Origin: an uncultured Lachnospiraceae bacterium
GTDB taxonomy: Bacteria; Bacillota; Clostridia; Lachnospirales; Lachnospiraceae
Direction of reading: 5' to 3'
Length of the DNA stretch: 61,947 nucleotides
Assembly (NCBI GenBank): GCA_902793335.1
Contig: CADBCZ010000018.1
Coordinates: forward strand, 1-61,947
Shown here: positions 14,275-46,715 of the stretch, piece after piece
How the letters are laid out: each line of letters opens with the position of its first letter
Position numbering within the stretch: the stretch's first letter is position 1
Notes under the pieces: generated by a model
What the model saw: only the letters and a program-made list of their open reading frames with translations
What the model was told of the DNA's origin: nothing
Databases searched by the model: none
Made by a program: the position numbers and the translations under genes

Positions 14275-14312
14275 AGCAACGAGACTGACGAATCTCATCA
14301 GCCCCATTGCTT
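14275..14312 (-). terminator. Promoter-proximal attenuator hairpin (AAGCAATGGGG) before OCD copy 2
   Basis: Read on the minus strand, AGCAATGGGGCTGA pairs with TCAGTCTCGTTGCT, followed by seven T. The stem begins about eight bases after the predicted -10 box, so transcripts would form it immediately. The ribosome binding site and OCD start lie about 25 bases further on. It belongs to the AAGCAA-GGG hairpin family discussed in the findings. Confidence 0.75.
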
Positions 14313-14319
14313 ATCTATG

Positions 14320-14348
14320 ACAATACTTTACACCCATTATGATAACAA
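14320..14348 (-). promoter_or_regulatory. Promoter of the OCD2-oxidoreductase operon
   Basis: The minus strand has TTGTTA (14343-14348), a 17-base spacer and TATTGT (14320-14325), a reasonable sigma-A promoter. Transcription should start around 14312-14314, at the CATAGATAAGCAA sequence. The same CATAGATAAG occurs after the PII promoter. Confidence 0.55.
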
Positions 14349-14357
14349 AACAATTAC

Positions 14358-14412
14358 TCCCGTGTGCCTTTTCCGTAATCCATACAGGGTATTTCATACC
14401 ACTAAAGTAGTA
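14358..14412 (-). promoter_or_regulatory. Operator-like block shared with the PII/pot promoter
   Basis: Plus-strand bases 14381-14412 read CATAC, GGTATTT, CATACC and AAAGTAGTA in order. The same order recurs at 20111-20146. The core GGTAT-GAA-ATACC is an inverted repeat on the minus strand. Next to it, at 14358-14372, TCCCGTGTGCCTTTT resembles a segment of the 237-bp repeats. The block lies about 33 bases upstream of the -35 box here versus about 3 bases at the PII promoter, a difference close to three helical turns. The GAF-LuxR regulator encoded at 20148 is a candidate binder. Confidence 0.5.
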
Positions 14413-14418
14413 TATTAT

Positions 14419-15576
14419 TTAAGCCATATAAGGTTCATTCCACAAATTAAGCGACTGCCCTATTCCAAACTCTAATGCTTTTTTGTAACAATCATATCCC
14501 CACGACAAATCTTCTAGTGGCATTCCTCCTATTGAACACATAACTATTTCATCTTTGTCTTTTCTGCCATCCGATATGCCGTTTACAATATCGCATAGAT
14601 TGATTACTTTTTCGCGAGACGCCTGCCCTGATTCAACCAAGTGAACAAAATGAATTCCCATAATAACCCATTCTCTCTTGTTTCCAAGTTCATCATATTC
14701 ACCTCTTGCTATAAAGTTGCTTAGATATTTTTGATACATTCCATAATTGTCCACTACCATAGTAGTATTTAAAAAGTCATCATATTTTCTGTACAAAAAT
14801 GAGCCCATGCTAAAAACCGTGGCACCCTTCTTAAACCACTCGAGTTTGAACTCTTCCATGTTTTCTTTTGTAACAGACATTGCTTCCGACACCACATCCG
14901 CATCTCTGCAAGCCTCTTCTAAACTATCACAAATTATGATTTCCTCAACTTTCGGGTATTTTTCTTCTATATATTTTTTCATATCCAATGCTGTTTTGGA
15001 TTTGCACGAACTTCCTCGGATTTTAATCTTTTTGATGTTAGGCAAAACAGACATATAACAATTAAGAGCACATTTATTGATAACACCAGGGCCAACCAAT
15101 GATAGGACTTCCGAATCCTTGTTTGCGAGATACGTTGCAGCCATTGCAGGCATCGCTCCGGTTCGCATCGCAGATAACAAATTAGCAGACATAATCGCCT
15201 TAGGTGCACCGGTATCAACATCAGATAATGTAACCATAAGAATTGATCTTGGAAGTCCCAATGCACTGTTATGGCTGTTCGAGCCGTAATATTTCTGACC
15301 TGCTATATGAAATCTACCTCCAAGATATGCAGGCATTGCCATGAATCTTCTGTCCGGTCCGTCATCAAGAGGGAATCCCTCTATCTGTGAGGTCTGCGGA
15401 AAGTTCATCTGAAGACCATGCTCATCCGCTTTAGGGCCTCCAAGTAAAAAATCCTTTTTCCCAAACAATGATAAAGTATCTCTCATTGTTTCAATACATG
15501 CAGCCTCATCAAGTACGCCTGCTTTAATCATGTCTTCTTCATTTAAATACAAAAAATCTATCTTTGGATAATCCAT
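14419..15576 (-). CDS. Ornithine cyclodeaminase / mu-crystallin family protein, copy 1
   Basis: Paralogue of the protein encoded downstream at 13113. It shares MDYPxIDFL at the N-terminus, the RRFMAMPAYLGG and GLPRSILMVTL segments, and SAMRTGAMPAMAATYL. Its dinucleotide motif, SLVGPGVINKCALNC, lacks the last glycine (GxGxxN instead of GxGxxG), so cofactor binding may differ. At 385 residues it is slightly longer. The start follows AAGGAGG. Both genes have separate leader hairpins, suggesting separate control. The two proteins might form a heteromer or handle related substrates. Confidence 0.85.
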   Translation of the reverse strand: MDYPKIDFLYLNEEDMIKAGVLDEAACIETMRDTLSLFGKKDFLLGGPKADEHGLQMNFPQTSQIEGFPLDDGPDRRFMAMPAYLGGRFHIAGQKYYGSNSHNSALGLPRSILMVTLSDVDTGAPKAIMSANLLSAMRTGAMPAMAATYLANKDSEVLSLVGPGVINKCALNCYMSVLPNIKKIKIRGSSCKSKTALDMKKYIEEKYPKVEEIIICDSLEEACRDADVVSEAMSVTKENMEEFKLEWFKKGATVFSMGSFLYRKYDDFLNTTMVVDNYGMYQKYLSNFIARGEYDELGNKREWVIMGIHFVHLVESGQASREKVINLCDIVNGISDGRKDKDEIVMCSIGGMPLEDLSWGYDCYKKALEFGIGQSLNLWNEPYMA

Positions 15577-15604
15577 AATTTCATCCTCCTTATTCTTTCC
15601 TACT

Positions 15605-15646
15605 TAAGCAAAAGCCCCGCTACAAACAAATTGCAGCAGAGCTTTC
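15605..15646 (-). terminator. Hairpin between potD and OCD copy 1
   Basis: On the minus strand AAAGCTCTGCTGCAA pairs with TTTGTAGCGGGGCTTT, followed by TTGCTTAAG. The right arm carries GGGGC, and AGC(A)A-like bases flank it in inverted order compared with the other family members. The T-tract is short, so it may be a partial terminator or a processing stem separating the transporter genes from the enzymes. Confidence 0.6.
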
Positions 15647-15664
15647 AACAGTAGGAGTGAAATT

Positions 15665-16714
15665 TTAATTCTTTAATTTTGTCCACATATCATCTAATCT
15701 GCCCATAGTTTCTGTATCAAGATATTTGATGAACTCTCCGTTTGCAATCACATCAGACGGAACATTTTTCGCAGTATTATTCACATAATCGTCACCCATT
15801 AACTTGAGCGCTTCTTTGTTAGGACAAAGATATGGGAAATCTTCAATGTTGGTCTTTGCAGCCTCTGCGGACAACATATAATTAATAAACTTCATCGCAT
15901 TATCATAGTTCTTTGCGCCTGTCGGTACACACCAGTTATCAAGGAACACGTACGCACCGTCCTCCGGATAAATGATTTCAATGTCAGGATTTTCATCCAT
16001 CGATAAAGCAATCTCTGCTGACCATACCATACCTACTGTACAGTCGCCGGCTATCAATGCTGACTTTGGAGAATCCGAATCATACAACTTAACATTATCT
16101 TTTAATGACAACAATTTTTCCTCTACTTCATCAAGTTTTGCAGAGTCGGTTTCATTCATTGAAAGTCCCATAGATCTTTCTGTTATACCAATAACAGCTC
16201 TGTAATCATCAAGTACAACAAGCTGACCTTTTAGTGAAGGATCAAACAAATCTGCATATGACTTGATTTCTTTGTCAACCTTTGACTTGTTAACAGCGAT
16301 ACATGCAACACCACCCTCATATGGAACAGAGTAGGTGTTATCCGGATCAAAAGGCTCACCTAAATATGCCGAATCAATATTGGACAGATTTGTAAGTGCC
16401 TCCTTATCAAGTTCCTGCAGTTTCCCCTGCTCAATCAAGTACTCTACTGCATAATCAGACGGCAAGATAACATCATATGTACCTTCTGCTTCCGACTTTA
16501 ATTTTGCAAGCAAATCCTCATTTGATGAATAAGTTGAAACATTACATTTAACCCCAAACTCATCCTCAAAATCTTTGATAGCAGACTCGGATACATATTC
16601 CGTCCACACAAACACATTTAATTCACCGTTGTCTGCTGTTTTTGACGAACCACATCCCGTCATTAACGCAAGTGCCATAACCGTTGTAATTACTCCTAAT
16701 AATCTTTTCTTCAT
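15665..16714 (-). CDS. potD: Polyamine-type ABC transporter substrate-binding lipoprotein
   Basis: The extracellular binding protein of the transporter. The signal peptide MKKRLLGVITTVMALALMTGC ends at a lipobox cysteine. The mature part begins LNVFVWTEYVSESAIKDFE, the hallmark opening of PotD/PotF proteins (VYNWTEYV). Aromatic and acidic residues expected for a polyamine pocket are present (VFLDNWCVP, VILPSDYAVEYL), but the ligand could equally be another amine or opine. Length 349 residues, normal. It is last in the potABCD set. Confidence 0.9.
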   Translation of the reverse strand: MKKRLLGVITTVMALALMTGCGSSKTADNGELNVFVWTEYVSESAIKDFEDEFGVKCNVSTYSSNEDLLAKLKSEAEGTYDVILPSDYAVEYLIEQGKLQELDKEALTNLSNIDSAYLGEPFDPDNTYSVPYEGGVACIAVNKSKVDKEIKSYADLFDPSLKGQLVVLDDYRAVIGITERSMGLSMNETDSAKLDEVEEKLLSLKDNVKLYDSDSPKSALIAGDCTVGMVWSAEIALSMDENPDIEIIYPEDGAYVFLDNWCVPTGAKNYDNAMKFINYMLSAEAAKTNIEDFPYLCPNKEALKLMGDDYVNNTAKNVPSDVIANGEFIKYLDTETMGRLDDMWTKLKN

Positions 16715-16751
16715 AAGCCATTCCTCCTTAAAACAGGCACAACGCCTTTAC

Positions 16752-17546
16752 TCATTTCTTCTTGAATAGGTCACCTTGAGTCAACACTACAAAAACAATC
16801 GTTCCGATAAGAATCAATGTCGAAAGTGCATTTACATCAGGTGCAACACCACTCTTAACCGATTCCATAACCTTAAGCGGATATGTCTTTGTCTGACCAT
16901 ACACAAAGTAACTGATAATAACATCATCTATTGAAAGCGTAAATGCTAACAATGCGCCACCTAAAATTCCCGGTGCCAATACCGGCAAAGTAATCTCAAA
17001 GAAAGTAACTATTCTGTTCGCGCCCAAGTCCATGCTTGCCTCTTCAATGGACTGATCGTATCCCGATAACCTTGCACGCACGTTAAATATTACAAACGGA
17101 ATACAGAACGTCACATGCGCAAGTATTAATGTAAGCATTCCTCGCGGTACATTTACTTTTGCAAAAATGGTAAGTAATGATATACCAAGTACGATTTCAG
17201 GAATAACAACCGGAATATATAACAAAGCATCAATAATATTCTTTCCTTTAAACTTGTATCTGTACATACCTATCGCACCCAGAGTACCAATAATTGTTGC
17301 AAAAATCGTACTCACTATTGCAATAATCATTGTTGTACCGAATGCCTCCAGTAATGATGTGTTATCCCACAGTTTGATATACCAGTCAAACGTAAAACCC
17401 TTCCAGCTCATATACGGCTTCGTTGTAGATGCATTAAATGAATTAACAACTATTACCGAAATTGGCAGGAACAAGAATAGATAAACCAAAGTACAAAAGA
17501 TGACACTTAGGCGTTTATTTCTTTTTTCTCTTCTTTGTTTCTTCAT
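16752..17546 (-). CDS. potC: Polyamine-type ABC transporter permease
   Basis: An inner-membrane permease with six predicted helices and the cytoplasmic EAA loop EEASMDLGANRIVTFFEITLPVLAPG, which contacts the ATPase. The opening part (VNSFNASTTKPYMSWKGFT) is typical of PotC/PotI. The ATG at 17546 is chosen because AGGAGGG lies eight bases upstream. It is paired with PotB just upstream in the operon. Confidence 0.9.
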   Translation of the reverse strand: MKKQRREKRNKRLSVIFCTLVYLFLFLPISVIVVNSFNASTTKPYMSWKGFTFDWYIKLWDNTSLLEAFGTTMIIAIVSTIFATIIGTLGAIGMYRYKFKGKNIIDALLYIPVVIPEIVLGISLLTIFAKVNVPRGMLTLILAHVTFCIPFVIFNVRARLSGYDQSIEEASMDLGANRIVTFFEITLPVLAPGILGGALLAFTLSIDDVIISYFVYGQTKTYPLKVMESVKSGVAPDVNALSTLILIGTIVFVVLTQGDLFKKK

Positions 17547-17558
17547 ACCCAAGCCCTC

Positions 17559-18431
17559 CTATACTCCAAGCGAATCCATATCTCCACCAAGTTTTTGATA
17601 GATCTTGACCAAAATAAGTGTAACAAGTATCAATATGATTGAAAGCGCTGCACCGAGCGGCCAGTTGTTTCCGCTTTGAAACTGTCTCTCAATCAAGTTA
17701 CCAATCATATCCGTGTTACCTCCGCCTAAGATATCAGATACAAAGAAATATCCTAAACATGGGATAAATACCATCAGACTTCCGGAAAATATACCGCTTG
17801 ATGTTAACGGCAAAATCACCTCAAAAAATGTTTCTGCAGGCTTTGCGCCCAAATCGGATGATGCCTCTAACAACGATGTATCAAGCTTTTCTATAGCTGT
17901 GTATAATGGAAGAATCATAAACGGAATCAAGCAATATACCATACCAAGTATTGTAGTACCCGTTTTATATAACAACTCAACCGGCTCATCTACAATGTGT
18001 AACGACATAAGCAGAGAGTTTAACCAGCCGGAAGTTCCCAAGAAAGTTCTCCACCCATATATTCTGATTAACGAATTAGTCCAGAATGGTATAATAACCA
18101 TCATGTATAATATCTTTTTCTTCTTGCTCTTTGTCCTCGCAATTACATATGAGAACGGATACCCGATTAAGATGCAAAGTATTGTAGTCACAGTAGCTAT
18201 AACTAGCGATTGCATATAAATCTTCAAGTAATCGGCATTGAATAGCTGCATATAATTATCCGTTGTAAAATCCAATGTAACGTTGTAAAACTCATCAATT
18301 GAGCACAAACTCATAACAGCCACATATATAAGCGGAATCGCTATAAGCAATACCATTATCAAAGTAACCGGACCTACCGTAAGCAATGCAGGAAGAGTGT
18401 TCGCTCTTAATTCATGTCTTGTTTTCTTCAT
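17559..18431 (-). CDS. potB: Polyamine-type ABC transporter permease
   Basis: Second permease subunit, 290 residues with six predicted helices. The EAA loop LLEASSDLGAKPAETFFEVI and the IPFWTNSLIRIYGW segment are strongly typical of PotB/PotH. It forms the translocation pathway with PotC. Gene order potA-potB-potC-potD is the standard one. The spacing to both neighbours is small, supporting one message. Confidence 0.92.
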   Translation of the reverse strand: MKKTRHELRANTLPALLTVGPVTLIMVLLIAIPLIYVAVMSLCSIDEFYNVTLDFTTDNYMQLFNADYLKIYMQSLVIATVTTILCILIGYPFSYVIARTKSKKKKILYMMVIIPFWTNSLIRIYGWRTFLGTSGWLNSLLMSLHIVDEPVELLYKTGTTILGMVYCLIPFMILPLYTAIEKLDTSLLEASSDLGAKPAETFFEVILPLTSSGIFSGSLMVFIPCLGYFFVSDILGGGNTDMIGNLIERQFQSGNNWPLGAALSIILILVTLILVKIYQKLGGDMDSLGV

Positions 18432-18458
18432 AATGGTTCTTCTCCTTCCACTAATCTT

Positions 18459-19568
18459 TTATGCCAGTTTAATATTGTTTATTGCCTCGAAGATATAATG
18501 ACTTTCATTGTGTATAAGTACCGCATCATCCACATCCCAGTACGGGTAACATTTGCTTCCTATAGGAGGCAATTCCTGACCTGCAAGTCTCTCGATTTTT
18601 AATTCGTTTCTGTTAGGAAGTGAAACAATACACTTAAGTACGGCTCCAACATAGATATAGTCCTTAACCTGTGCCTGCAACCCGAAGCCCTCAACAGGTG
18701 TCGTTGAAAACTTCATTTTCTCCGGTCTTACAGATACCGTTGCATATTCCAGCAGCGAAAAATCTTCCGGACATCTGATTGACACAACACCATTCTCAAG
18801 CGTAACAGTTGCAATTCCATCTGTGATACCAGTGATACAACCGTCATATATATTAGCTTCGCCGATAAATGCTGCAACGAACTTGGTCGCCGGATGCTCA
18901 TATATTTCCGACGGTGACGCAAGCTGGTCAATAACGCCGTCATGCATTACTGCAATTCTGTCACTCATCGTCAACGCTTCTTCCTGATCGTGCGTAACAT
19001 ATATAAATGTGATATTTAGTTTTTTCTGCAAACGCTTAAGTTCAAGCTGCATCTGTTTTCTTAATTTCAAATCGAGTGCACCAAGCGGTTCATCCAACAA
19101 CAACACTCGCGGTCTATTTATAAGTGCTCTGGCAATTGCAACTCTCTGTCTCTGACCACCCGACAACTGTGACGGATATCTTTTTTCAAATCCGGTAAGT
19201 TGGACCATGTCCATCATTTCCAAAACGCGCTCTTTTATCTCTTCCTTCGGAACTTTTTTCATCTTCAAGCCATACGCGATGTTATCAAAAATGGTCTTGT
19301 GCGGGAACAATGCATACGACTGAAATACAGTATTGACATTTCTCTCAAAAGGTTCCTTTTCTTCCACTCTTTCGCCTTCAACCTTAATCGTCCCTGTTGT
19401 CGGTTCCTCAAAACCTGCTACCATTCTAAGCGTTGTCGTCTTACCGCAACCGGAAGAACCAAGTAACGTCAAAAACTCACCTTCTTTGATGGTAAGATTC
19501 AAATCTTTAACTACATGATTCTTTCCGTATATTTTATTTACGCCTTCTATTTCAACAATATTTCCCAT
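18459..19568 (-). CDS. potA: Polyamine-type ABC transporter ATPase
   Basis: ATP-binding subunit that drives uptake. Walker A is GSSGCGKTT, the signature is LSGGQRQRVAIARAL, Walker B is VLLLDEPLGALD, and the switch histidine is in VTHDQEEALTMSDRIAVM. A C-terminal TOBE domain (residues about 285-369) is present as in PotA. 369 residues, normal length. It follows the PII-like gene by 28 bases, so PII and the transporter are made together. Confidence 0.93.
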   Translation of the reverse strand: MGNIVEIEGVNKIYGKNHVVKDLNLTIKEGEFLTLLGSSGCGKTTTLRMVAGFEEPTTGTIKVEGERVEEKEPFERNVNTVFQSYALFPHKTIFDNIAYGLKMKKVPKEEIKERVLEMMDMVQLTGFEKRYPSQLSGGQRQRVAIARALINRPRVLLLDEPLGALDLKLRKQMQLELKRLQKKLNITFIYVTHDQEEALTMSDRIAVMHDGVIDQLASPSEIYEHPATKFVAAFIGEANIYDGCITGITDGIATVTLENGVVSIRCPEDFSLLEYATVSVRPEKMKFSTTPVEGFGLQAQVKDYIYVGAVLKCIVSLPNRNELKIERLAGQELPPIGSKCYPYWDVDDAVLIHNESHYIFEAINNIKLA

Positions 19569-19596
19569 AGGATCACCTCTTTATCTGTTAGAATTC

Positions 19597-19953
19597 TTAG
19601 AGTGCCTTCACGCCTCTTTCACCTGTTCGAATTCTTACTGCATCCTCTACATCCTTGATAAAGATTTTTCCGTCTCCAACATGACCTGTTACACAGGTGT
19701 CTCTGATCTTATCGATAATCTTTTCTACATCTTTGTTCTCCACTACGATTTCAACCTTTACTTTCGGCAAAAGATTAATTGTCGTCTTCAAACCTTTTAT
19801 TTCATTTACTGCACCGTCTTCATCAGAAACACCTTTCTGTGTTCCACAACCCATTGCCGTTGATAATGTCATACCTCCGCAATTAACATCATCCAATACG
19901 CTCTTAACATCCTCTAATTTTTCCGGCCTTATTAAAATAATTAATTCTTTCAT
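19597..19953 (-). CDS. PII-family signal protein without the T-loop tyrosine
   Basis: PII proteins sense ATP/ADP and 2-oxoglutarate and regulate nitrogen uptake or assimilation. The fold is clear: MKELIILIRPEKLEDVKSVL, GCGTQKG, LLPKVKVEIVV and TGHVGDGKIFI. In GlnB/GlnK the T-loop has YRGxEYxV before LLPK, with Tyr51 as the uridylylation site. Here the aligned region is IKGLKTTINLLPK, lacking both tyrosines, so uridylylation is not possible. NifI-type PII proteins also lack it. As first gene before potABCD it may gate the transporter or regulate the operon. Confidence 0.9.
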   Translation of the reverse strand: MKELIILIRPEKLEDVKSVLDDVNCGGMTLSTAMGCGTQKGVSDEDGAVNEIKGLKTTINLLPKVKVEIVVENKDVEKIIDKIRDTCVTGHVGDGKIFIKDVEDAVRIRTGERGVKAL

Positions 19954-20016
19954 AGCTCATTCCCCTTTTCTTACAAAATCTTATTGTTAGCAGTTTGATT
20001 AAGCATTTGTATATAA

Positions 20017-20057
20017 CAAAAACGGGACTTTCCTTTTCAGAAAGCCCCGTTGCTTAA
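20017..20057 (-). terminator. Promoter-proximal attenuator hairpin (AAGCAACGGGG) before the PII gene
   Basis: On the minus strand AACGGGGCTTTC pairs with GAAAGTCCCGTT, followed by a T-run. Nothing is encoded between the promoter and this terminator-like hairpin, so it can only act as a leader attenuator or insulator. The PII start is about 65 bases downstream. Confidence 0.75.
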
Positions 20058-20079
20058 AACCATCTTATCTATGCACAAT

Positions 20080-20146: not shown

Positions 20147-20147
20147 G

Positions 20148-20897: not shown

Positions 20898-20924
20898 AAA
20901 GCATCACCTTCTTTTAAGAACACC

Positions 20925-23495
20925 TTAGCATGTAATCAGCAGATGCTCGTTTGCAACATCATTATATACCTCACACTTTCTGTCACTCACATCATACACG
21001 CGAACAATATCCGCAAGTGTTGTATTCTGTTCAAATTCTGATATAAGATTTCTTGATGATTCCAGCTTTTCAGGTGAAAAATGCAAGGTCTTTTCATTGT
21101 TAAATATCGCTGTGTAGAGAATCTCCGCCTCTACCAGATCCTGAAAAATGTGACTTCCGTAAGAAAGCTCCGGATTATAACCTGCTTTGCTCTCTTCCGT
21201 CTCACATATTATCTCATAGGCGCTTATATCGGAAAATGCCGTAGGAACTCCAAGTTCAGGAGATGTAGTACCTACGCGTCCCGGCACTATCAGCATCATA
21301 TGTTTGTTCATATCTCTGTAATGCCAGTTTATCTTACCGATAAGTTTTGCCACAATATCCTTTTCCTTATAAGGCATATTATAATACTTTACCGGATCAA
21401 CGTAAACAATTATATCTAAGATAGACGCTTTCGACATGCCCATAGACGAACCTTTACTCTCAAGTAATATCTTATCTTCAGGAATATCTTCCGGAATGAC
21501 CGTTCCCGTCTTTCCTTTTTGAACCTGTAACGGTCTGCACTGCAAAAGGTCAACAGAGTATTCACCGTTTTCTGATATATTTATTGTAAACTCTGTATCA
21601 ACCGGATATTCATATTCATCCTGAATACATCTAAGCATCCTCTTCATCTGCTCCATAAGCGTCGCATTTGCCACAAGACCTTTGCAGGAAATGAACTTCA
21701 CTTCTCTTCTTCTGCCCATCTCTCTTAATCTTGACTCTGCATCACAATCATGCTCAAGAAGTATCTTATCAAGATATTTAGGAATATCCGCCTCTATATT
21801 TTCAAGAGAAAGTTTCTTCATCACCTTTTCAGCCATATCTATGACTTCCGCTTTTCCCTGTGAAAATTTATGCTTATCGGCAGAAGAAGAATAAGAAGTC
21901 TTCTCCGGTCTGTCAAGATTAACAATCCTGGGATATGACCCTTCAGTTCTGTCTACCGCAGAAGTTCCAAGTCCCATAACCAGTCTCAACATTCCGGCAG
22001 TCGGATCTGTATCCTTCATAATTCTATACGGGCTGTACGAATATCCGACACCCGCTGCGCAAGGCATATAATTAGGTCCGTAATACGATCCTGACACTCT
22101 CTGTATAAGAAGTGCCATCTGTTCATCACGCTTATCAAGGCCTCTTCTTTTCCTGTAATCGAGTGCAGATAGACTCATCGAACTTGCGTATACTACCTTT
22201 ATGGCATGTTCAAACTCATCAAGTCGTTCAGAGAGATCTCCTCTGTTAACACAAAACACCGATTCATATTTCCCGGCAAAAGCATTACCAAATCCGTCCT
22301 CCAATATACTGCTTGAACGTATAATATACGGATCCTGACCATAGTAGTCAATTATCCTTACAAACTGTTCTCGCATAGCATCAGAAAACTTTCCCGCCAT
22401 AATCTTGTGCGCAAACTCTCCGGCAAGTGAAAAATACCCATTCTCTGTCCGTTGTTTTATGCGCATATCCCAAAGATCATTATCAACAATAAATGTATAA
22501 TATAGATCTGAGCCTACATAAAACGAATCATGCGGCTCAAGCACTTCATTGATATCAGGTTCATTGTTTCTTATTATTGCCCTTGCAAGCAGCATACCAC
22601 ATGCCTTACCGCCTATCATTCCTGTTCCGATCATGTGATCTCTCACAGCAAAATAATCCTCCGGTGTGAAATGTTTCTTTACCATCTCCCTCATCTTGGA
22701 ATCTCTGGTCATCATGATATCACACATTTTAGAACATTCGGCTGTTATATCCATCCCATTGTCTTTCATAAGCTTAACTTTAGTAAAAAATTGATTCCAT
22801 GAATCAGAATACTGCTCGTCAGCCGAACGTTGAGCCATACCTAACGCCTGATAAAATCTGCTTGATCTTACACCGTCCAATATGGGTGAGAACTCTCCGC
22901 TTTGCGGATCATATGTATGCGGAAGGAACATTGTATCAGAGTTTCTGTTCCATACCTTTTCAGGACGCACGTAAATGTTTCTTTTGTCTGAATACACATC
23001 AAAAAAAAGCTGAGTAGTATTGAAAATTTTATTGATTGCCTGTACAGAATGCTTTCCTCTTATTATCGGGAAGAAAGCAACCGTATCCAGCACAAATAGA
23101 AACGGACATGTAACACGAAAAAAATTGCCCATCATAAGATCGGTAGCCCATGCGGTCTGAAGCTCGGAAAGACAGTCAAATACATAAAATGCATCTCTTC
23201 CCTCTTCTTCGATCGTATTATGTATATCTACTGTAAATGTTTCAAATCTGTGAGATAATGGAACTTTAATTGTCTTTATTTCCGGACAATCCTCAATAAG
23301 CGGTTCATGTCCAGCAAACCTGAAATATATAATATTTCTCTTATCCTCTATAGCCTGTCTGATATAAGGTTCCATGAACAATTTAAACTCGGATAAATCA
23401 GACACTCGCCACACAACATTATCCCCAAGTCTTATATTATCAATTGCCTCATCCAACTTAGGAATACCACTTTTTACTCTGTCAAATGCAGCCAT
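20925..23495 (-). CDS. PEP synthase/PPDK-like ATP-grasp protein with RecA-like N-terminus
   Basis: An 856-residue protein. Residues about 1-180 resemble a KaiC/RecA-type domain (SGIPKLDEAIDNIRLGDNVVWRV) but no Walker A lysine loop is visible. Residues about 290-690 match the ATP/pyruvate-binding domain of PPDK and PEP synthase: GTGMIGGKACGMLLARAI, RSSSILEDGFGNAFAGKYES, and LLQCRPLQ. The phosphohistidine swivel domain and the PEP-binding barrel are missing, so it cannot be a complete dikinase. It may phosphorylate another substrate. Start follows AAGGAGGGG, and the 237-bp repeat ends at that site. Confidence 0.75.
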   Translation of the reverse strand: MAAFDRVKSGIPKLDEAIDNIRLGDNVVWRVSDLSEFKLFMEPYIRQAIEDKRNIIYFRFAGHEPLIEDCPEIKTIKVPLSHRFETFTVDIHNTIEEEGRDAFYVFDCLSELQTAWATDLMMGNFFRVTCPFLFVLDTVAFFPIIRGKHSVQAINKIFNTTQLFFDVYSDKRNIYVRPEKVWNRNSDTMFLPHTYDPQSGEFSPILDGVRSSRFYQALGMAQRSADEQYSDSWNQFFTKVKLMKDNGMDITAECSKMCDIMMTRDSKMREMVKKHFTPEDYFAVRDHMIGTGMIGGKACGMLLARAIIRNNEPDINEVLEPHDSFYVGSDLYYTFIVDNDLWDMRIKQRTENGYFSLAGEFAHKIMAGKFSDAMREQFVRIIDYYGQDPYIIRSSSILEDGFGNAFAGKYESVFCVNRGDLSERLDEFEHAIKVVYASSMSLSALDYRKRRGLDKRDEQMALLIQRVSGSYYGPNYMPCAAGVGYSYSPYRIMKDTDPTAGMLRLVMGLGTSAVDRTEGSYPRIVNLDRPEKTSYSSSADKHKFSQGKAEVIDMAEKVMKKLSLENIEADIPKYLDKILLEHDCDAESRLREMGRRREVKFISCKGLVANATLMEQMKRMLRCIQDEYEYPVDTEFTINISENGEYSVDLLQCRPLQVQKGKTGTVIPEDIPEDKILLESKGSSMGMSKASILDIIVYVDPVKYYNMPYKEKDIVAKLIGKINWHYRDMNKHMMLIVPGRVGTTSPELGVPTAFSDISAYEIICETEESKAGYNPELSYGSHIFQDLVEAEILYTAIFNNEKTLHFSPEKLESSRNLISEFEQNTTLADIVRVYDVSDRKCEVYNDVANEHLLITC

Positions 23496-23507
23496 AATAA
23501 CACCCCT

Positions 23508-23744
23508 CCTTCATCCCACAATAATATTTTAAAAACCTGCCACAGTATCTTAAACTATCATTCGCATTACGATTAAAAAAACACATACTGTACCGTCCAA
23601 TCTAGATTGGTGGGAGGATCCAACCAACAAAATAATTAATGTCATGGAATATTATTATCATTTTGATTGAATTATAATTTAAACCGGCTTTCCCGTATGT
23701 GCCTTTACAAGCATTAAATGCCTGTAAACTATATTAATGATCTG
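23508..23744. repeat. 237-bp direct repeat, copy 1
   Basis: Fills the gap between the serine dehydratase and PPDK-like genes. It is about 96 percent identical, by hand alignment, to 40341-40576 in the same orientation; the first 60 bases are identical. It contains the perfect palindrome CCAATCTAGATTGG, a hairpin TTTACAGGCATT/ AATGCTTGTAAA on the minus strand, and TCCCGTATGTGCCTTT. It carries no open frame. The minus-strand end merges with the ribosome binding site of the downstream gene, so it also acts as that gene's 5' region. Confidence 0.9.
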
Positions 23745-23766
23745 AATTAATTATAACAGTCTATTA

Positions 23767-32237: not shown

Positions 32238-32286
32238 TTAAAGGGGCTCTTTCTTTATCACTTTAAAGAAAAAGCCCCTTTGCTTT
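32238..32286 (-). terminator. Attenuator-type hairpin (AAGCAAAGGGG) before the kinase-like gene
   Basis: On the minus strand AAAGGGGCTTTTTCTTTA pairs with TAAAGAAAGAGCCCCTTT. Only three T follow, so termination would be weak. It can also end the alcohol dehydrogenase transcript. It is a member of the AAGCAA-GGG family. Confidence 0.65.
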
Positions 32287-33398: not shown

Positions 33399-33448
33399 TT
33401 ATCCACCTCCGATCAATAATATGTTTGTCATTAAATAATCAAAATAAA

Positions 33449-33490
33449 AAGGCAAAGACGTCACTTCTCATTGACTCCTTTGCCCTTGCT
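33449..33490 (-). terminator. Attenuator hairpin (AAGCAAGGG) before the alcohol dehydrogenase
   Basis: On the minus strand GGCAAAG, two bases, GTCA pair with TGAC, two bases, CTTTGCC, followed by TTTTTATTTT. The 5' flank is AAGCAAGGG. Upstream sequence with TTGCAT and TAATAT spaced by 17 bases could be a promoter, leaving little leader before the hairpin. It also can terminate the PucR transcript. Confidence 0.7.
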
Positions 33491-33573
33491 TTATTATTGA
33501 TGTGCAAATATTATCATCATCAATTCAAATATGCAATAACACATCAAACATTAAATCTTGTGCAGCTGCACAA

Positions 33574-36543: not shown

Positions 36544-36547
36544 ACAA

Positions 36548-39233: not shown

Positions 39234-39248
39234 ATCTTTCACCTTTCC

Positions 39249-39968
39249 TTAATCACATATATATCTTGGTCGATACTTTCCGTTTTCAACATCTTTTTTT
39301 ATAAGTTCATAATCCGTTTCATTAATCCGGACAAATCTTATATATTCTCCTGCATTGCATAGTACAGGTTTTTTTCGCGTCGGGTTATAAAATTCCAGCG
39401 GCGTTCGCCCTATCAGCCACCAGCCACCGGGAGATTCTACAGGATATACTCCGGTCTGATTTCCACCAATACCTACAGATCCTGCCGGTATGCTGGTTCT
39501 CGGTGTTTCGAGCCGTGGCATATGTATTCTCGCGTCCAAACCTCCAAGATAAGTAAATCCCGGCAGAAATCCAAGCATATATATCTTATAATCAACAGCT
39601 GAATGTATAGAAATGATCTCCTCCCTGCTTATTCCTGTCTTTATTGACATATAATCAAGATCCGGTCCTTTATCTCCTCCGTAGCAGCAAGGTACACATA
39701 ATATCTTTTTCTCCTCATTTAAAGCATCAGTCCCATCATTCTTAAAATGCTTTATTCTTTTTATAAGCTTTCCGTATGATATAAGCTCATTATCATAAAA
39801 GATCATAAGGCTACGGAATGTCGGCAGCAGCTCCCTGACGCCATATATTTTTTCACTTCTTACATACTCTGCCAATGCATGGACCTGCCTGTTAATGCCA
39901 TCGTCTATTATTCTTCCAAATTCCACAACCAGTGCTTCATCACCTGCCGGCATAAACTTCATATCCAT
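39249..39968 (-). CDS. pxpB: 5-oxoprolinase subunit B
   Basis: The AHS1/KipI-type subunit. Characteristic segments are MPAGDEALVVEFGR, LGFLPGFTYLGGLDARIHMP and SVGIGGNQTGVYPVESPGGW. 239 residues. First gene of the oxoprolinase/D-glutamate operon, with an unusually strong promoter and two leader hairpins upstream. The start follows GGGAGG. Confidence 0.94.
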   Translation of the reverse strand: MDMKFMPAGDEALVVEFGRIIDDGINRQVHALAEYVRSEKIYGVRELLPTFRSLMIFYDNELISYGKLIKRIKHFKNDGTDALNEEKKILCVPCCYGGDKGPDLDYMSIKTGISREEIISIHSAVDYKIYMLGFLPGFTYLGGLDARIHMPRLETPRTSIPAGSVGIGGNQTGVYPVESPGGWWLIGRTPLEFYNPTRKKPVLCNAGEYIRFVRINETDYELIKKDVENGKYRPRYICD

Positions 39969-40072
39969 AGTATCATCATCCTCCCTCTTTCAATCCGATG
40001 CCGGGCTGCAGGTATAGTTAAGTAACTCCTATGCCCTGTAAGGATTATCAAGTATTACATTGCCTTATAAAC

Positions 40073-40120
40073 AACAAGGGCGTTCCAACCACAGCAAAGT
40101 GGTATGGAACGCCCTTGTTC
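40073..40120 (-). other. Second, very stable leader hairpin before pxpB
   Basis: AACAAGGGCGTTCC pairs perfectly with GGAACGCCCTTGTT, and the 20-base interior has a further CCAC/GTGG pairing. It follows the first leader terminator by about 10 bases on the minus strand. The flank AACAAGGG is one base off the AGCAAGGG family motif. Only a weak T-run follows, so it may act as a second-stage barrier or mRNA stabiliser. Confidence 0.7.
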
Positions 40121-40162
40121 AAAAATAAAAAAGGGAGCTGAAAATGTTACAGCTCCCTTGCT
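40121..40162 (-). terminator. Promoter-proximal attenuator hairpin (TAGCAAGGG) before pxpB
   Basis: On the minus strand AAGGGAGCTG pairs with CAGCTCCCTT around a nine-base loop, followed by TTTTTTATTTTT. The hairpin begins nine bases after the -10 box of a consensus promoter, so it forms essentially at the transcript 5' end. This is the clearest example of the AAGCAA-GGG design. Confidence 0.8.
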
Positions 40163-40171
40163 ATGTGACAT

Positions 40172-40200
40172 ATTATAATATCGATAATTTTTAATGTCAA
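40172..40200 (-). promoter_or_regulatory. Consensus sigma-A promoter of the pxp operon
   Basis: The minus strand has TTGACA (40195-40200), exactly 17 bases, then TATAAT (40172-40177), a perfect match to the housekeeping promoter consensus. Such a strong promoter directly followed by a strong terminator implies that expression is set after initiation. Confidence 0.85.
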
Positions 40201-40250: not shown

Positions 40251-40283
40251 TTATATCAATTAATATACTTCTTGTCTTTTTGT

Positions 40284-40322: not shown

Positions 40323-40340
40323 TTACCTTTTGTGTCTCTT

Positions 40341-40576
40341 CCTTATCCCACAATAATATTTTAAAAACCTGCCACAGTATCTTAAACTATCATTCGCATT
40401 ACGATTTAAAAAAACACATACGGTACCGGCCAATCTAGATTGTGGGAGGATCCAACCAATAAAATAATTAATGTCACGGAATATTATTATCATTTTGATT
40501 GAATTATAATTTAAACTGGCTTTCCCGTATGTGCCTTTAAAAGCGTTAAATGCCTGTAAACTATATTAATTATCTG
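40341..40576. repeat. 237-bp direct repeat, copy 2
   Basis: Same orientation as copy 1 at 23508-23744, with about eight substitutions and two one-base indels by hand count. It lies between the intact gltD and the gltD remnant. The palindrome CAATCTAGATTG is kept. No open frame is visible. Confidence 0.9.
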
Positions 40577-40602
40577 TTATAAAAGTGATGTTTCGTAATC
40601 AT

Positions 40603-42087: not shown

Positions 42088-42100
42088 CGTCTTCTTCCTC

Positions 42101-45100
42101 CTATCCAACAAGCTCCGTAAATGCCTCAATCTGCGCCTGCTCTCTGTCCATACCCTGCTCTTCATTACGAGCAGTAAGTCTCAACATCTCTTTGTAATCT
42201 GTCGGAATGATCTTCTTAAACTTTCCGATATACTCATCAAAGTTGTCAAGTATCATTTGACCCTTCTTAGAACCTGTATATCTGACATGGTTTTCAATCA
42301 TTCTCTTAAGCTCTTCCTTATCGTTCTTAAGTTCAACTTTCTCCATGTTTACAAGCTGCTTATTAAGGTTTTTGTACAAATGATTCTCCTCATCAAGGAC
42401 ATAAGCAACACCGCCGCTCATACCGGCTGCAAAGTTCTTACCTGTTGGGCCAAGAATAACCGCATGACCACCTGTCATATATTCACATCCATGCTCACCT
42501 ACACCCTCAACAACCGCGGTTACACCGGAATTACGAATACAGAAACGTTCTCCTGCCATACCTGCAATGTATGCTTCTCCGGAGGTTGCGCCGTAAAGAG
42601 CTACGTTACCAATTATTATATTCTCACTTGGATCGTATTTTGCATCCTCCGGTGCATGAACTATCAGTTTTCCACCTGAAAGGCCCTTTCCGAAATAATC
42701 ATTACTGTCTCCTGTAAGATTTAGAGTAAGACCCTTAGGAATAAATGCACCAAAGCTCTGTCCGCCTGAACCCTTACAATTGATTTCAATTGTATCTTCC
42801 TGAAGTCCTTCGGCATTATGTCTTGTGATTTCTGCTCCAAGTAAAGTACCAAAGGTTCTGTCTATATTCGTAAGCTCAATATTAATACTGCTCTTCTTTC
42901 CTTTTGCAATAGATTCTTTTATAGCCTTATCTTTAAGCAATACCATCTCATCCTTTGTACCCTCAAGTTTGAAATCATATGCAAGCTCAGGGTGGAAGGT
43001 CTGAAGATTTCTGTCAATTGCCGAAGTATCCACAAGAATTTGACCGAGATCAATTTTGGCCTGTTTGTCAGCAAGACCTTTTTTAACCTTCAAAAGATCG
43101 GTTCTACCCACCATCTCATCTATTGTTCTAACGCCAAGACGCGCCATGTATTCACGCAACTGTTTTGCTATAAACAACATGAAATTCTCAACATATTCAG
43201 GTTTACCTGCAAATCTCTTTCTAAGCTCAGGATTCTGAGTAGCAACACCTACAGGACATGTATCCTTATTACATACTCTCATCATCACACAACCAAGTGT
43301 TACAAGAGGGGCTGTCGCAAATCCGAATTCCTCAGCACCAAGAAGTGCTGCTATTGCAACATCTCTTCCGCTCATAAGCTTTCCATCTGTCTCTATAACA
43401 ACCTGATTTCTAAGTCCGTTTGAGAGAAGTGTCTGGTGAGTCTCAGCAAGACCAAGTTCCCAAGGCAGACCTGCATTATGAATTGAGCTAAGCGGTGCCG
43501 CACCTGTTCCTCCGTCATAACCGGAAACGAGAATTACCTGAGCACCTGCCTTTGCAACACCGGCTGCAACAGTTCCCACACCGGCTTCTGAAACAAGCTT
43601 TACAGAAATACGAGCATTTTTATTGGCATTTTTCAGGTCGTATATAAGCTGTGCCAAATCCTCTATAGAATAGATATCATGATGAGGCGGTGGTGAAATA
43701 AGACTAACTCCCGGTGTTGAATGTCTGGTCTTTGCTACCCATGGGTAAACCTTTTTGCCCGGAAGATGTCCACCTTCTCCAGGTTTTGCACCCTGCGCCA
43801 TCTTAATCTGAATCTCCTTGGCACTTACAAGATACTTACTTGTTACACCAAAACGTCCACTTGCAACCTGTTTAATTGCTGAACTTCTATCGTTCTTAGT
43901 TCCGGCAGATGCAATTCTTTCATCACTCTCTCCACCCTCACCACTGTTTGATTTACCATGTAAATGATTCATCGCAATAGCCAATGTCTGATGTGCTTCC
44001 TCCGAAATCGAACCGTAAGACATAGCTCCTGTCTTGAAACGCTTAACGATTTCTTCTTCACTCTCAACCTCTTCAATCGGAACACCATTTTTCGGATAGT
44101 TGAAATCCATAAGACTTCTTAAATATCCTGTGTCCTCTGAGTCAACCATCTTGGTATATTCAACAAACTTATCATAACTTCCCTCTCTTGTAGAAAGCTG
44201 TAACATATGTATAGTCTGAGGATTATATCTGTGATTTTCTCCCTGACTTCTTGCCTTATGTCTTCCCATAGCAGTAAGTTCCATATCTGCTGAAAGACCT
44301 AACGGATCAAATGCACGACTGTGTTGTTTATCAACCGCATTTGCAATATCATCTAATGTAATTCCGCCTACACGACTTACCGTTCCGGTGAAATATTTAT
44401 CTACTACTTCTTTTGAAATACCTATTGCCTCAAATATCTTACTTCCCTGATATGACTGGATAGTAGATATACCCATCTTTGATGCGATCTTAACAATTCC
44501 ATGTAAGATAGCACTGTCATAATCATCAACTGCTGCATAGTAATCCTTGTCAAGCAGATCATTGTCAACAAGCTCCTTGATTGTTGAATGTGCAAGATAT
44601 GGATTGACTGCTGATGCACCAAATCCCAAAAGTGTTGCAAAATGATGTACCTCACGAGGTTCACCTGATTCAAGTATAAGTGACATCGCTGTACATTTCT
44701 TGGTAACAACCAAATGTCTGTGCACCGCTGCAACCGCAAGCAATGAAGGAAGTGCAACATGGTTCTCATCAACTCCCCTGTCTGAAAGGATGAGTATGTT
44801 AGCACCATCTCTGTATGCCTTATCAACCTCAACAAATAAGTGATCTATTACACGCTCAATCGGTGTACTCTTGTAGTAGAGAATCGATACCTTTGCTACC
44901 TTGAATCCCTCTGCCTTGAAATTCTCAATCTTTAACAGGTCTAAATCCGTAAGAATTGGATTATGTATTTTTAAAACATGACAGTTCTCTGGCTTTTCCT
45001 CTAAAAGATTACCGTTCTTGCCGACATAAACAGTTCTTGAAGTAACAATCTTTTCACGTTCTGCATCAATTGGTGGATTGGTTACCTGTGCAAACAACTG

Positions 45101-46651
45101 TTTAAAGTAATAGAACAATGGCTGATATTCATCTGAAAGTGCTGCAATCGGGGTATCAACACCCATAGCACCAATCTGCTCTATTCCATTTAATGCCATA
45201 TTAAGAATTCCCTCATGGTAATTCTCATATGTATAGCCAAATGCTTTCTGAAGACGAGTTCTCTCCTCATCTGTGTATGAAGGAATCTTAGCATTAGGAA
45301 TCTTGATATCCTTAAGCTTTAACAGATTACTGTCAAGCCACTCACCATATGGCTCCTTGTGAGCATATCTCTCCTTGATTTCCTCATCGGAATATATCTT
45401 ATTCTTTGTTGTATCTACAAGAAGCATCTTACCGGGATGAAGTCTTTCCTTCTTAACGATATGTTTTTCGTCAAGGGCAAGCACACCGACTTCTGAAGAT
45501 AAGATAAGACGTCCATCATCCATTACATAATATCTTGATGGGCGGAGACCATTTCTGTCGAGAATGGCACCCATCACATCACCGTCCGAAAACAGAATTG
45601 ATGCAGGTCCGTCCCAAGGCTCCATCATAGTTGCATAATACTGATAGAAGTCTCTCTCCTCCTGTGTAAGTGTATCATTGTGAGCCCAAGGTTCAGGGAT
45701 AGCAATCATAGCTGCAAGAGGAAGCTCCATACCGCTCATAACCAAAAATTCCAATGTGTTGTCAAGCATTGCCGAATCAGAACCGCTTGAAGAGATAACA
45801 GGAAGAACCTTTGTCATATCATCCTCTGAAAGAACGCTTGTATTCATTGTCTCCTCGCGGGCAAGCATTTTATCCGCATTACCTTTAATAGTGTTAATCT
45901 CACCGTTATGAACCATAAAACGGTTAGGATGAGCACGATTCCAACTGGGATTTGTGTTAGTTGAAAATCTTGAATGTACCATAGCTATCGCTGACTCATA
46001 ATCTTTTTCCATAAGGTCTAAGAAAAATGTTCTAAGCTGTCCAACTAAAAACATTCCTTTATATACAATAGTTCTGCATGAAAGAGAAGGCACGTAGGTA
46101 TTAACACTACTCTGCTCAAACTCTCTTCTGATAACATACAATTTTCTATCGAAATCAAGGTCAGTCTCAAAGCCCGCAGGTCTTTCAATAAATACCTGCA
46201 TGATAACCGGCATACATGAACGCGCCTTACTTCCCAAAACTTCAGGTTTGATATCAACCTTTCTCCATCCTAAGATTTTGAGACGTTCCTTCTCAGTAAT
46301 AGTCTCAAACATCTTCTTCGCCTGTCTGGTTTCGAGATCATTTTGTGGGAAAAAGAACATTCCGACACCGTAACCTCTCTCTGCCGGGAGAGTCACTCCC
46401 TGCTCTTTCATCTTACGAACAAAGAATTTATGTGGAATCTGTGTAAGTATTCCTACACCATCACCTGTCTTTCCCTCAGCATCCTTACCGGCTCTGTGTT
46501 CAAGATTCTCCACAATGCTTAATGCGTCTGCAACCAGCTGATGATTTTTCTTTCCATCAATCTGAATGACTGCACCGATACCACAATTATCATGTTCAAA
46601 CTGTGGATCATACAGACCATTTTGTCTTAATTGCTCTAATTCTTTGTTCAT
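42101..46651 (-). CDS. gltB: Glutamate synthase large subunit
   Basis: A 1516-residue enzyme converting glutamine plus 2-oxoglutarate to two glutamates. The class II glutaminase nucleophile is Cys23 (HDNCGIG), so a 22-residue propeptide is likely removed. The FMN/TIM-barrel synthase domain contains the 3Fe-4S cysteines CVMMRVCNKDTCPVG. The C-terminal beta-helix domain (GSGGQSFGAFIPKG, YGATSGEAYIAGMAGERF) is complete. The start follows GGGAGG. It is the main ammonium-assimilation enzyme in the window and is preceded by a leader attenuator. Confidence 0.97.
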   Translation of the reverse strand: MNKELEQLRQNGLYDPQFEHDNCGIGAVIQIDGKKNHQLVADALSIVENLEHRAGKDAEGKTGDGVGILTQIPHKFFVRKMKEQGVTLPAERGYGVGMFFFPQNDLETRQAKKMFETITEKERLKILGWRKVDIKPEVLGSKARSCMPVIMQVFIERPAGFETDLDFDRKLYVIRREFEQSSVNTYVPSLSCRTIVYKGMFLVGQLRTFFLDLMEKDYESAIAMVHSRFSTNTNPSWNRAHPNRFMVHNGEINTIKGNADKMLAREETMNTSVLSEDDMTKVLPVISSSGSDSAMLDNTLEFLVMSGMELPLAAMIAIPEPWAHNDTLTQEERDFYQYYATMMEPWDGPASILFSDGDVMGAILDRNGLRPSRYYVMDDGRLILSSEVGVLALDEKHIVKKERLHPGKMLLVDTTKNKIYSDEEIKERYAHKEPYGEWLDSNLLKLKDIKIPNAKIPSYTDEERTRLQKAFGYTYENYHEGILNMALNGIEQIGAMGVDTPIAALSDEYQPLFYYFKQLFAQVTNPPIDAEREKIVTSRTVYVGKNGNLLEEKPENCHVLKIHNPILTDLDLLKIENFKAEGFKVAKVSILYYKSTPIERVIDHLFVEVDKAYRDGANILILSDRGVDENHVALPSLLAVAAVHRHLVVTKKCTAMSLILESGEPREVHHFATLLGFGASAVNPYLAHSTIKELVDNDLLDKDYYAAVDDYDSAILHGIVKIASKMGISTIQSYQGSKIFEAIGISKEVVDKYFTGTVSRVGGITLDDIANAVDKQHSRAFDPLGLSADMELTAMGRHKARSQGENHRYNPQTIHMLQLSTREGSYDKFVEYTKMVDSEDTGYLRSLMDFNYPKNGVPIEEVESEEEIVKRFKTGAMSYGSISEEAHQTLAIAMNHLHGKSNSGEGGESDERIASAGTKNDRSSAIKQVASGRFGVTSKYLVSAKEIQIKMAQGAKPGEGGHLPGKKVYPWVAKTRHSTPGVSLISPPPHHDIYSIEDLAQLIYDLKNANKNARISVKLVSEAGVGTVAAGVAKAGAQVILVSGYDGGTGAAPLSSIHNAGLPWELGLAETHQTLLSNGLRNQVVIETDGKLMSGRDVAIAALLGAEEFGFATAPLVTLGCVMMRVCNKDTCPVGVATQNPELRKRFAGKPEYVENFMLFIAKQLREYMARLGVRTIDEMVGRTDLLKVKKGLADKQAKIDLGQILVDTSAIDRNLQTFHPELAYDFKLEGTKDEMVLLKDKAIKESIAKGKKSSINIELTNIDRTFGTLLGAEITRHNAEGLQEDTIEINCKGSGGQSFGAFIPKGLTLNLTGDSNDYFGKGLSGGKLIVHAPEDAKYDPSENIIIGNVALYGATSGEAYIAGMAGERFCIRNSGVTAVVEGVGEHGCEYMTGGHAVILGPTGKNFAAGMSGGVAYVLDEENHLYKNLNKQLVNMEKVELKNDKEELKRMIENHVRYTGSKKGQMILDNFDEYIGKFKKIIPTDYKEMLRLTARNEEQGMDREQAQIEAFTELVG

Positions 46652-46673
46652 GATTTTTCCTCCCTAGAACGCG

Positions 46674-46715
46674 CAAAAGGGTGCTTCGAGTAAAAACCTC
46701 GAAACACCCTTGCTT
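46674..46715 (-). terminator. Attenuator-type hairpin (AAGCAAGGG) before gltB
   Basis: On the minus strand GCAAGGGTGTTTCGAG pairs with CTCGAAGCACCCTTTTGC around a loop of T residues. The T-run after the stem is short. It lies about 70 bases after the promoter and ends about 20 bases before the start codon, close to the ribosome binding site. It could therefore affect termination or translation. Confidence 0.65.

What the first reader, a model, noticed from the sequence alone, without database searches (positions are those of the whole stretch)
14275..46715. Family of AAGCAA(N)GGG leader hairpins shared by nitrogen-metabolism operons
Hairpins of one design occur on the minus strand at 14275-14312, 20017-20057, 32238-32286, 33449-33490, 40121-40162 and 46674-46715, with an inverted-type relative at 15605-15646 and a near-match at 40073-40120. 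The 5' side reads AAGCAA(N)GGG or TAGCAAGGG and the best ones end in T-runs. At pxpB the stem starts nine bases after a perfect TTGACA-17-TATAAT promoter, at OCD2 about eight bases after a good -10 box. Downstream genes are PII/pot, both OCDs, an alcohol dehydrogenase, a kinase-like protein, pxpB and gltB. I match this to no known class; ANTAR and RAT signatures are absent. It looks like an undescribed attenuation regulon.
Basis: partly seen in the sequence, partly recalled or inferred. Interest (0 to 1): 0.82.

Follow-up and report, generated by a model that had tools for sequence, protein, structure and literature searches.

The report
One-hairpin ANTAR attenuators on nitrogen genes
Short RNA switches in front of nitrogen genes of a Lachnospiraceae-type bacterium match the binding site of a known class of RNA-binding regulators (ANTAR), but most use one hairpin where the studied examples need two, a variant that recurs in related bacteria.

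Summary
The hairpins are real: 7 of the 8 named sites hold one common element (15605-15646 does not). The shared AAGCAA(N)GGG is not a new motif. It is a mini-hairpin C[AANGGN]G, a six-base loop with A first and G fourth under a C-G pair, overlapping the 5' arm of a terminator-like hairpin. One ANTAR protein was found in the genome, encoded directly behind glnA. So the attenuation regulon is supported, as one of the ANTAR kind.

Departure: ANTAR targets are defined as two hairpins 5-12 nt apart. Here only gltB (and a dapL-like gene and carA elsewhere) shows P1 and P2, 41-67 nt apart; pxpB has two terminator-linked hairpins; the rest have one. A pattern tying the single hairpin to a -10 box finds it, far above control, in front of amt, PII, glnA, GSIII, asnA, asnB, gltB and amidotransferase genes of Clostridia, too near the predicted start for a P1, and mainly in genomes with an ANTAR gene (19 of 196 versus 2 of 195). 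In 47 of 47 sampled cases the ANTAR gene follows glnA and the phospho-acceptor Asp is missing. All evidence is sequence; binding and antitermination are inferred.

The parts
46673..46716 (-). gltB leader: P2 mini-hairpin gaagc[AAGGGT]gtttc (46701-46716) inside the 5' arm of a long hairpin with a short T-run
   Evidence: P2 conserved with covariation in gltB leaders of relatives
46767..46786 (-). gltB leader: P1 mini-hairpin gtatttc[AAAGGC]gaaatat, 50 nt before P2
   Evidence: counterparts in the own dapL-like (L009/L165) and carA (L016/L181) leaders
46794..46821 (-). gltB promoter TTGACA-16-TATACT
   Evidence: 11/12
40126..40164 (-). pxpB attenuator 1: atagc[AAGGGA]gctgt (40149-40164) overlapping a terminator with a long T-run, about at the predicted start site
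40070..40120 (-). pxpB attenuator 2: gaac[AAGGGC]gttc (40107-40120) overlapping a second long hairpin, 28 nt behind the first mini-hairpin
40172..40200 (-). pxpB promoter TTGACA-17-TATAAT
   Evidence: 12/12
20019..20055 (-). PII-pot operon attenuator: aagc[AACGGG]gctt (20042-20055) overlapping a terminator-like hairpin; PII leaders of three other genomes carry AACGGA loops
14274..14312 (-). OCD-family gene (13113-14246) attenuator: agc[AATGGG]gct (14300-14311), 3-bp mini-stem, strong terminator; the G165 ortholog has loop GATGGA (A1 lost)
33446..33492 (-). Fe-ADH gene attenuator: ggc[AAAGGA]gtc (33473-33484), weak 3-bp stem with one G-U, strong terminator
32238..32286 (-). hairpin between Fe-ADH stop and cytidylate-kinase-like gene: aaagc[AAAGGG]gcttt (32271-32286); no near promoter, weak T-run
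13113..14246 (-). OCD/mu-crystallin family gene (NCBIfam name: tyramine oxidase subunit B)
19597..19953 (-). PII signal protein gene, first of PII-potABCD
39249..39968 (-). pxpB, 5-oxoprolinase subunit
42101..46651 (-). gltB, glutamate synthase large subunit

Best explanation
The hairpins are ANTAR-type attenuators. Default state: the long hairpin forms as the leader is made and, where a U-run follows, terminates transcription (at gltB and at the kinase gene the U-run is short, so weaker attenuation or an effect on translation is possible). Active state: the genome's ANTAR protein, encoded behind glnA, binds the hexaloop of the short C[AANGGN]G hairpin, holds it, and so takes the 5' arm away from the terminator; the nitrogen gene is read. 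Shown by sequence: the hairpins, the loop, the overlap, stem covariation in gltB leaders, the gene content, the glnA-linked ANTAR gene, loss of the phospho-acceptor. Inferred: binding, direction (on when nitrogen is short, as reported for NitR), and that the signal comes through glutamine synthetase or another partner rather than phosphorylation. PII, OCD, ADH and kinase leaders here have one hairpin where EutV needs two, so this is a one-hairpin variant.
For: In all 63 CAANGGNG words there (50 leaders; opposite strand 3) the next four stem positions pair in 61, 62, 59 and 54 cases versus maxima of 51, 51, 52 and 48 in 1000 permutations, with GC/AT/TA exchange; the sixth position shows nothing. 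Family survey: 94 listed matches (93 distinct) versus 35 reversed-pattern matches in 397 genomes; 40 of 92 sites read have the overlapping terminator, shuffle mean 3.25, max 5; a -35 of at least 4/6 stands before 30 of those 40 and 22 of the other 52; 22 of the 40 precede core ammonium/glutamine genes. Class survey: 30 of 391 genomes match, control 2 hits in 1 genome; sites with terminator in 19 of 196 ANTAR+ (own genome included) and 2 of 195 ANTAR- genomes, Fisher p 1.5e-4. Regulator: one ANTAR match in the own genome; in 47 of 47 sampled cases it follows glnA on the same strand and none has Asp at the phospho site. L292, L348 and L368 carry the element before glnA with the ANTAR gene about 1.8 kb on.
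Against: No expression or binding data. EutV needs P1 as well as P2 and a short linker, and binds one stem-loop less well (though SPR found similar affinity for isolated loops); NasR binds one hairpin about 12-fold more weakly. Here single hairpins are common and clear P1s lie 25-90 nt away. In G165 the PII and OCD leaders have loop GATGGA, losing A1, and the raw pattern there is not above control (15 versus 19). Own glnA shows by eye no motif in the roughly 165 nt upstream that the contig holds. RNAfold closes the gltB P2 loop by one more A-U pair. L178 looks like an ordinary 3' terminator. The exact AGCAA-GGG-CCC pattern is near chance in most of 150 family genomes. The survey patterns fix AA, GG, the inner pairs and the -10 distance, so these are not independent evidence. 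The co-occurrence test is not corrected for phylogeny, and no background share of nitrogen genes was measured.
Confidence: 0.83

Rival explanations
1. Classical two-hairpin ANTAR targets: every leader has a P1 that the scan missed (non-canonical loop, bulged stem, or a start site further upstream), so nothing departs from EutV.
For: gltB, the dapL-like gene and carA in this genome have a clear P1; 14 of 49 gltB leaders of relatives have some hexaloop P1 candidate, nine of them with a convincing loop; pxpB has two mini-hairpins.
Against: If the start is the 7th base after TATAAT, 37 of 40 promoter-linked sites leave at most 9 nt before the mini-hairpin, too little for a 12-nt P1 (the pattern itself limits the distance to 24 nt). 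A second C[AANGGN]G of 4 or more bp within 250 nt downstream exists in 5 of 40. The nine convincing P1s lie 25-90 nt away; EutV tolerated neither 14 nt nor a 20-nt extension.
Confidence: 0.25
2. The hairpins are attenuators worked by something other than the ANTAR protein (another RNA-binding protein, a small-molecule riboswitch, or start-site/NTP sensing), the loop similarity being convergent.
For: One hairpin near +1 is unlike the studied ANTAR targets; A1 is replaced by G in two G165 leaders; 2 ANTAR-negative genomes hold the element with terminator.
Against: Loop, closing pair, overlap and gene set match ANTAR; co-occurrence with PF03861; the element precedes glnA-ANTAR operons in three genomes. 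The two negative genomes, G482 (96% complete) and G684 (78%), share a genus with G646, which has the gene.
Confidence: 0.1
3. Ordinary intrinsic terminators that happen to lie between genes, with no regulation.
For: L178 is such a case; several window hairpins are good terminators between co-directional genes.
Against: pxpB and gltB hairpins follow good promoters; loop and pair conservation with covariation at gltB; association with amt, PII, glnA, GSIII, asn and gltB genes.
Confidence: 0.05

Closest known systems
ANTAR target RNAs of EutV (Enterococcus faecalis eut leaders), Ramesh et al. 2012, PMC3369931
   Same: Short hairpin with 6-nt loop, A at 1 and G at 4, overlapping the 5' arm of an intrinsic terminator; predicted targets there include PII, ammonium transporters and glutamate/glutamine synthesis genes
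   Different: There two hairpins 5-12 nt apart are required; here mostly one, and clear pairs lie 25-90 nt apart. EutV is phosphorylated; here the phospho-acceptor is missing in 47 of 47 sampled proteins
NasR / nasF leader (Klebsiella), PMC7496416
   Same: SELEX consensus with terminal C:G pair and A1/G4 hexaloop; nitrogen assimilation
   Different: NIT sensor domain and two-hairpin leader; single hairpin bound about 12-fold more weakly
NitR of Clostridium saccharobutylicum (Stutz et al. 2007, seen only as cited in PMC6316151)
   Same: ANTAR protein reported to induce GS/GOGAT genes on nitrogen limitation; probably the same regulator family (inference; that nitR lies behind glnA is recalled)
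   Different: Its RNA targets could not be read here; whether one or two hairpins is unknown to me
AmiR/AmiC and NasT/NasS (passages in PMC3369931 and PMC3795266)
   Same: ANTAR protein with receiver-like domain released by a partner protein instead of by a kinase
   Different: Partners are small-molecule binding proteins; here the neighbour is glutamine synthetase, whose partner role is inferred

Membership tests
ANTAR target RNA (dual hairpin) | Hexaloop with A at position 1 and G at position 4 | tested here: met
ANTAR target RNA (dual hairpin) | Closing C-G pair on a stem of at least 3 bp | tested here: met
   same sites (the scan requires the pair, one search does not); covariation in gltB leaders
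ANTAR target RNA (dual hairpin) | Antiterminator hairpin overlaps and excludes a terminator | tested here: met
   overlap with a long hairpin at 7 of 7; T-run rule met at 4 of 7, 20017 also in the simple terminator scan
ANTAR target RNA (dual hairpin) | Two hairpins, P1 and P2 | tested here: not met
   met at gltB and (differently) pxpB; not met at OCD, PII, ADH, kinase nor, for lack of room before the predicted start, at 37 of 40 sites in relatives
ANTAR target RNA (dual hairpin) | Linker about 5-12 nt | tested here: not met
   50 nt at gltB, 41 and 67 nt at the dapL-like and carA leaders, 28 nt between the pxpB hairpins
ANTAR target RNA (dual hairpin) | Genome encodes an ANTAR-domain protein | tested here: met
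   one, PF03861 E 1.9e-13; PDB matches 1s8n, 6wsh and 1qo0
ANTAR target RNA (dual hairpin) | Protein binds the hairpin and relieves termination | not testable with these tools
   needs binding and transcription assays
EutV-type phospho-activated ANTAR response regulator | Phospho-acceptor Asp in the receiver domain | tested here: not met
   0 of 47 aligned proteins have Asp there (G 35, N 6, S 4, A 2)
Rfam 15 families (known riboswitches, T-box and others) | Match to a curated covariance model at gathering score | tested here: not met
   0 matches in the window; one tRNA only in 20 loci, most with the element

The most novel reading that the evidence does not exclude
A one-hairpin form of ANTAR antitermination built into the first ~45 nt of the message is a major nitrogen-control system of Clostridia: a glnA-linked, phosphorylation-dead ANTAR protein, gated by glutamine synthetase or another partner, acts on amt, PII, glnA, GSIII, asnA/asnB, gltB and amidotransferase genes without the recruitment hairpin that EutV needs.
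Probability: 0.5. Interest if true: 0.78.

Novelty: new variant of a known kind. Interest (0 to 1): 0.62.

Why it matters
It puts many nitrogen genes of Clostridia under one predicted RNA-level switch and names its likely regulator. It also sets a clear test of the current ANTAR model: published work says two hairpins at short spacing are needed, while this regulon appears to run mostly on one. The pairing of an ANTAR protein without phospho-acceptor with glutamine synthetase suggests a direct metabolic signal, in the manner of TnrA with glutamine synthetase in Bacillus (described in PMC6316151), but acting on RNA.

Tried and rejected
The 15605-15646 hairpin was rejected as a member. Rfam gave nothing for the element. 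A covariance model was considered but not built; stem pairing was tested by permutation, which does not correct for relatedness. Own glnA leader: the contig ends about 165 nt upstream; no motif by eye. PII hits: 7 loci were looked at, the minus-strand ones in the wrong direction; only L136 was used. One search read several minus-strand loci in the wrong direction; it is used only for the OCD and PII leaders of G165, read again. My terminator rule (at least 9 pairs, at least 5 T in 8, -10 kcal/mol or lower) misses some real-looking sites (L213, L230 and L297 before GSIII/Amt-like frames; L357, L360 at class level), so 40 of 92 and 21 of 30 are probably low; on the other hand 6 of the 40 lie in frames of 100 or more codons and were kept. 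Of 93 distinct sites one (G000:C40, inside a frame, seen as L176) was not in the 92. One class-level match (G482:C123) had no locus and was not examined.

Literature: only the held open-access library was searched. I saw no single-hairpin ANTAR attenuator in those listings or in the passages read; subscription papers, Stutz 2007 and the supplements of Ramesh 2012 were not readable. Seen: PMC3369931 outline, sections 7 and 10 (part 1 of 2) and passages; passages only of PMC8934654, PMC7496416, PMC6316151, PMC3795266. Other papers: search listings only.
Full report
Observation. The bare words AGCAANGGG and AGCAAGGG are only mildly enriched in the window (4 each versus 1.33 expected). In the own genome the word followed by a matching 3' arm occurs at 7 distinct places, 4 of them in this window, with 1 control hit.

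What the word is. Read as RNA structure, AGC AANGGN GYT is a short stem closing a six-base loop with A first and G fourth under a C-G pair (a scan that asked only for A1, G4 and 3 bp; it also lists some weaker hexaloops in these leaders). The 3' arm of the small hairpin lies inside the 5' arm of the long hairpin, so only one can form. A scan of the whole window for C[AANGGN]G finds 10, of which 8 overlap a long hairpin, against 0.58 on average in 60 shuffles. Folding energies are -0.1 to -3.6 kcal/mol for the mini-hairpins and -17 to -36 for the long ones, so the small one needs a binder to win. For gltB P2 RNAfold adds one A-U pair inside the loop.

Comparison with ANTAR. The published ANTAR target is two such hairpins with A1 and G4, the second excluding a terminator, with a linker of 5-12 nt; 3 or 14 nt hurts (PMC3369931). 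A 20-nt extension abolishes antitermination in vitro although each hairpin alone is bound (PMC8934654). SELEX with NasR adds a terminal C:G pair and finds single-hairpin binding near 12 uM against 1 uM (PMC7496416). Loop, pair and overlap are met here. The two-hairpin and linker rules are not, except in part at gltB (P1 and P2, 50 nt apart), the dapL-like gene (41 nt), carA (67 nt) and pxpB (two terminator-linked hairpins 28 nt apart).

Own genome. AGCAANGGNGYT gives 18 places versus 4 control. Eight lie inside reading frames, one (L178) between convergent genes, and nine in leaders: five in the window, plus an aminotransferase gene (Pfam class I/II; by eye LL-diaminopimelate aminotransferase), carA, a Peptidase_C26/glutamine-amidotransferase gene and a circularly permuted ATP-grasp gene. 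One PF03861 protein was found, just behind a glutamine synthetase gene, related to PDB entries 1s8n, 6wsh and 1qo0.

Relatives, gltB. Of 80 gltB leaders from named records, mostly Lachnospiraceae and many from rumen, 49 have C[AANGGN]G on 4 or more bp; shuffles give 0.18 on average and the opposite strand 1. Looking at all 63 CAANGGNG words (in 50 leaders) regardless of stem, the next four stem positions pair in 61, 62, 59 and 54 cases, above the best of 1000 permutations, with two-sided changes; the sixth position (21) does not exceed its permutations. By my promoter rule 10 of the 49 are start-site proximal without P1, 14 have some P1 candidate (linkers 15-124 nt; nine with a convincing loop, 25-90 nt), and 25 show neither.

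Relatives, one-hairpin form. TATAAT, 4-24 nt, then AGCAANGGNGYT was sought in 397 family genomes: 94 listed matches (93 distinct sites) against 35 for the reversed pattern (counted by hand). Of 92 sites read, 40 have the overlapping terminator, against 3.25 (max 5) when the bases behind the motif are shuffled. A -35 of at least 4/6 stands before 30 of the 40 and before 22 of the other 52. If the start is the 7th base after TATAAT, 37 of 40 leave 9 nt or less before the hairpin, too little for any P1; the pattern itself fixes the short distance, so the evidence lies in the excess over control, the terminators and the -35 boxes. Behind the 40: ammonium transporter 5, small GATase_2-type protein 5 (one by Pfam, four by eye), PII 3, PurF-like 2, and one each of gltB, glnA, GSIII, asnA, asnB, pyrG and nadE, that is 22 of 40. 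Seven more are nitrogen-compound genes or amino-acid/peptide-type transporters, 8 are other or unknown, 3 have no called frame. No background share was measured. Relative G165 shows the form before amt, PII, an OCD gene, an amidohydrolase and a periplasmic binding protein, but PII and OCD there have loop GATGGA, and its raw match count (15) is not above control (19).

Class level. In 391 Clostridia genomes a stricter pattern with a T-run occurs in 30 genomes; its control in one. PF03861 is in 196 of 391 (193 over the curated cut-off). Sites passing the terminator rule are in 19 of 196 ANTAR-positive genomes (own included) and 2 of 195 negative ones (Fisher p 1.5e-4; all pattern matches 23 versus 7, p 0.004). 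One negative is listed as such; the others were read from absence in the positive list. Of the 21 sites, 18 precede GSIII (6), amt (5), glnA (2), gltB (2), asnA, PurF-like or GATase_2 genes, 12 named by Pfam and 6 by eye. Three sites (L292, L348, L368) precede glnA with the ANTAR gene about 1.8 kb on, suggesting autoregulation.

Regulator. PF03861 occurs in 131 of 150 family genomes, nearly always once. Of 49 loci read (own, eight best, 40 picked down the list), an ANTAR frame was found in 47. All 47 lie behind glnA on the same strand (one with stop-to-stop frames overlapping by 67 nt, which the script labelled downstream; two with gaps of 148 and 332 nt). None has Asp at the receiver's phospho site, and of the acidic pair only 2 of 47 keep one residue. 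So phosphorylation as in EutV is unlikely; release by a partner, as for AmiR and NasT, is the likeliest signal route. NitR of C. saccharobutylicum is reported to induce GS/GOGAT genes on nitrogen limitation (PMC6316151).

Verdict. A real attenuation regulon, of the ANTAR kind, with a one-hairpin target near the start site as the common form. The kind is known; the one-hairpin, long-linker version with a regulator lacking the phospho-acceptor is a variant I did not find described in the searches named under Tried and rejected. Everything is sequence inference.

Noticed in passing
23507-23760 and 40340-40586 (both minus strand): About 250 nt of nearly identical sequence sits upstream of the serine dehydratase gene and again upstream of the pxpB leader; no Rfam match. 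It could be a mobile or duplicated leader element or an unknown regulatory RNA.
   Followed up: partly
L200 and L203 (G165), upstream of OCD-family and PII genes: Both leaders carry the same altered loop GATGGA (A1 to G), whereas L198, L201 and L202 of the same genome keep A1: drift, or a sub-class with its own specificity.
   Followed up: no
L250 (relative) and window 20925-23495: A one-hairpin element in a relative precedes a PPDK_N-domain protein whose NCBIfam match is the same as that of the window protein encoded near PII.
   Followed up: no
L009/L165, L016/L181 and window 46767-46821: The dapL-like, carA and gltB leaders share not only P1 and P2 but, by eye, promoter and start-site sequence, as if copied from one leader.
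   Followed up: partly
15605-15646 (minus): A strong hairpin between potD and the second OCD-family gene lacks the ANTAR loop; its role is open.
   Followed up: no
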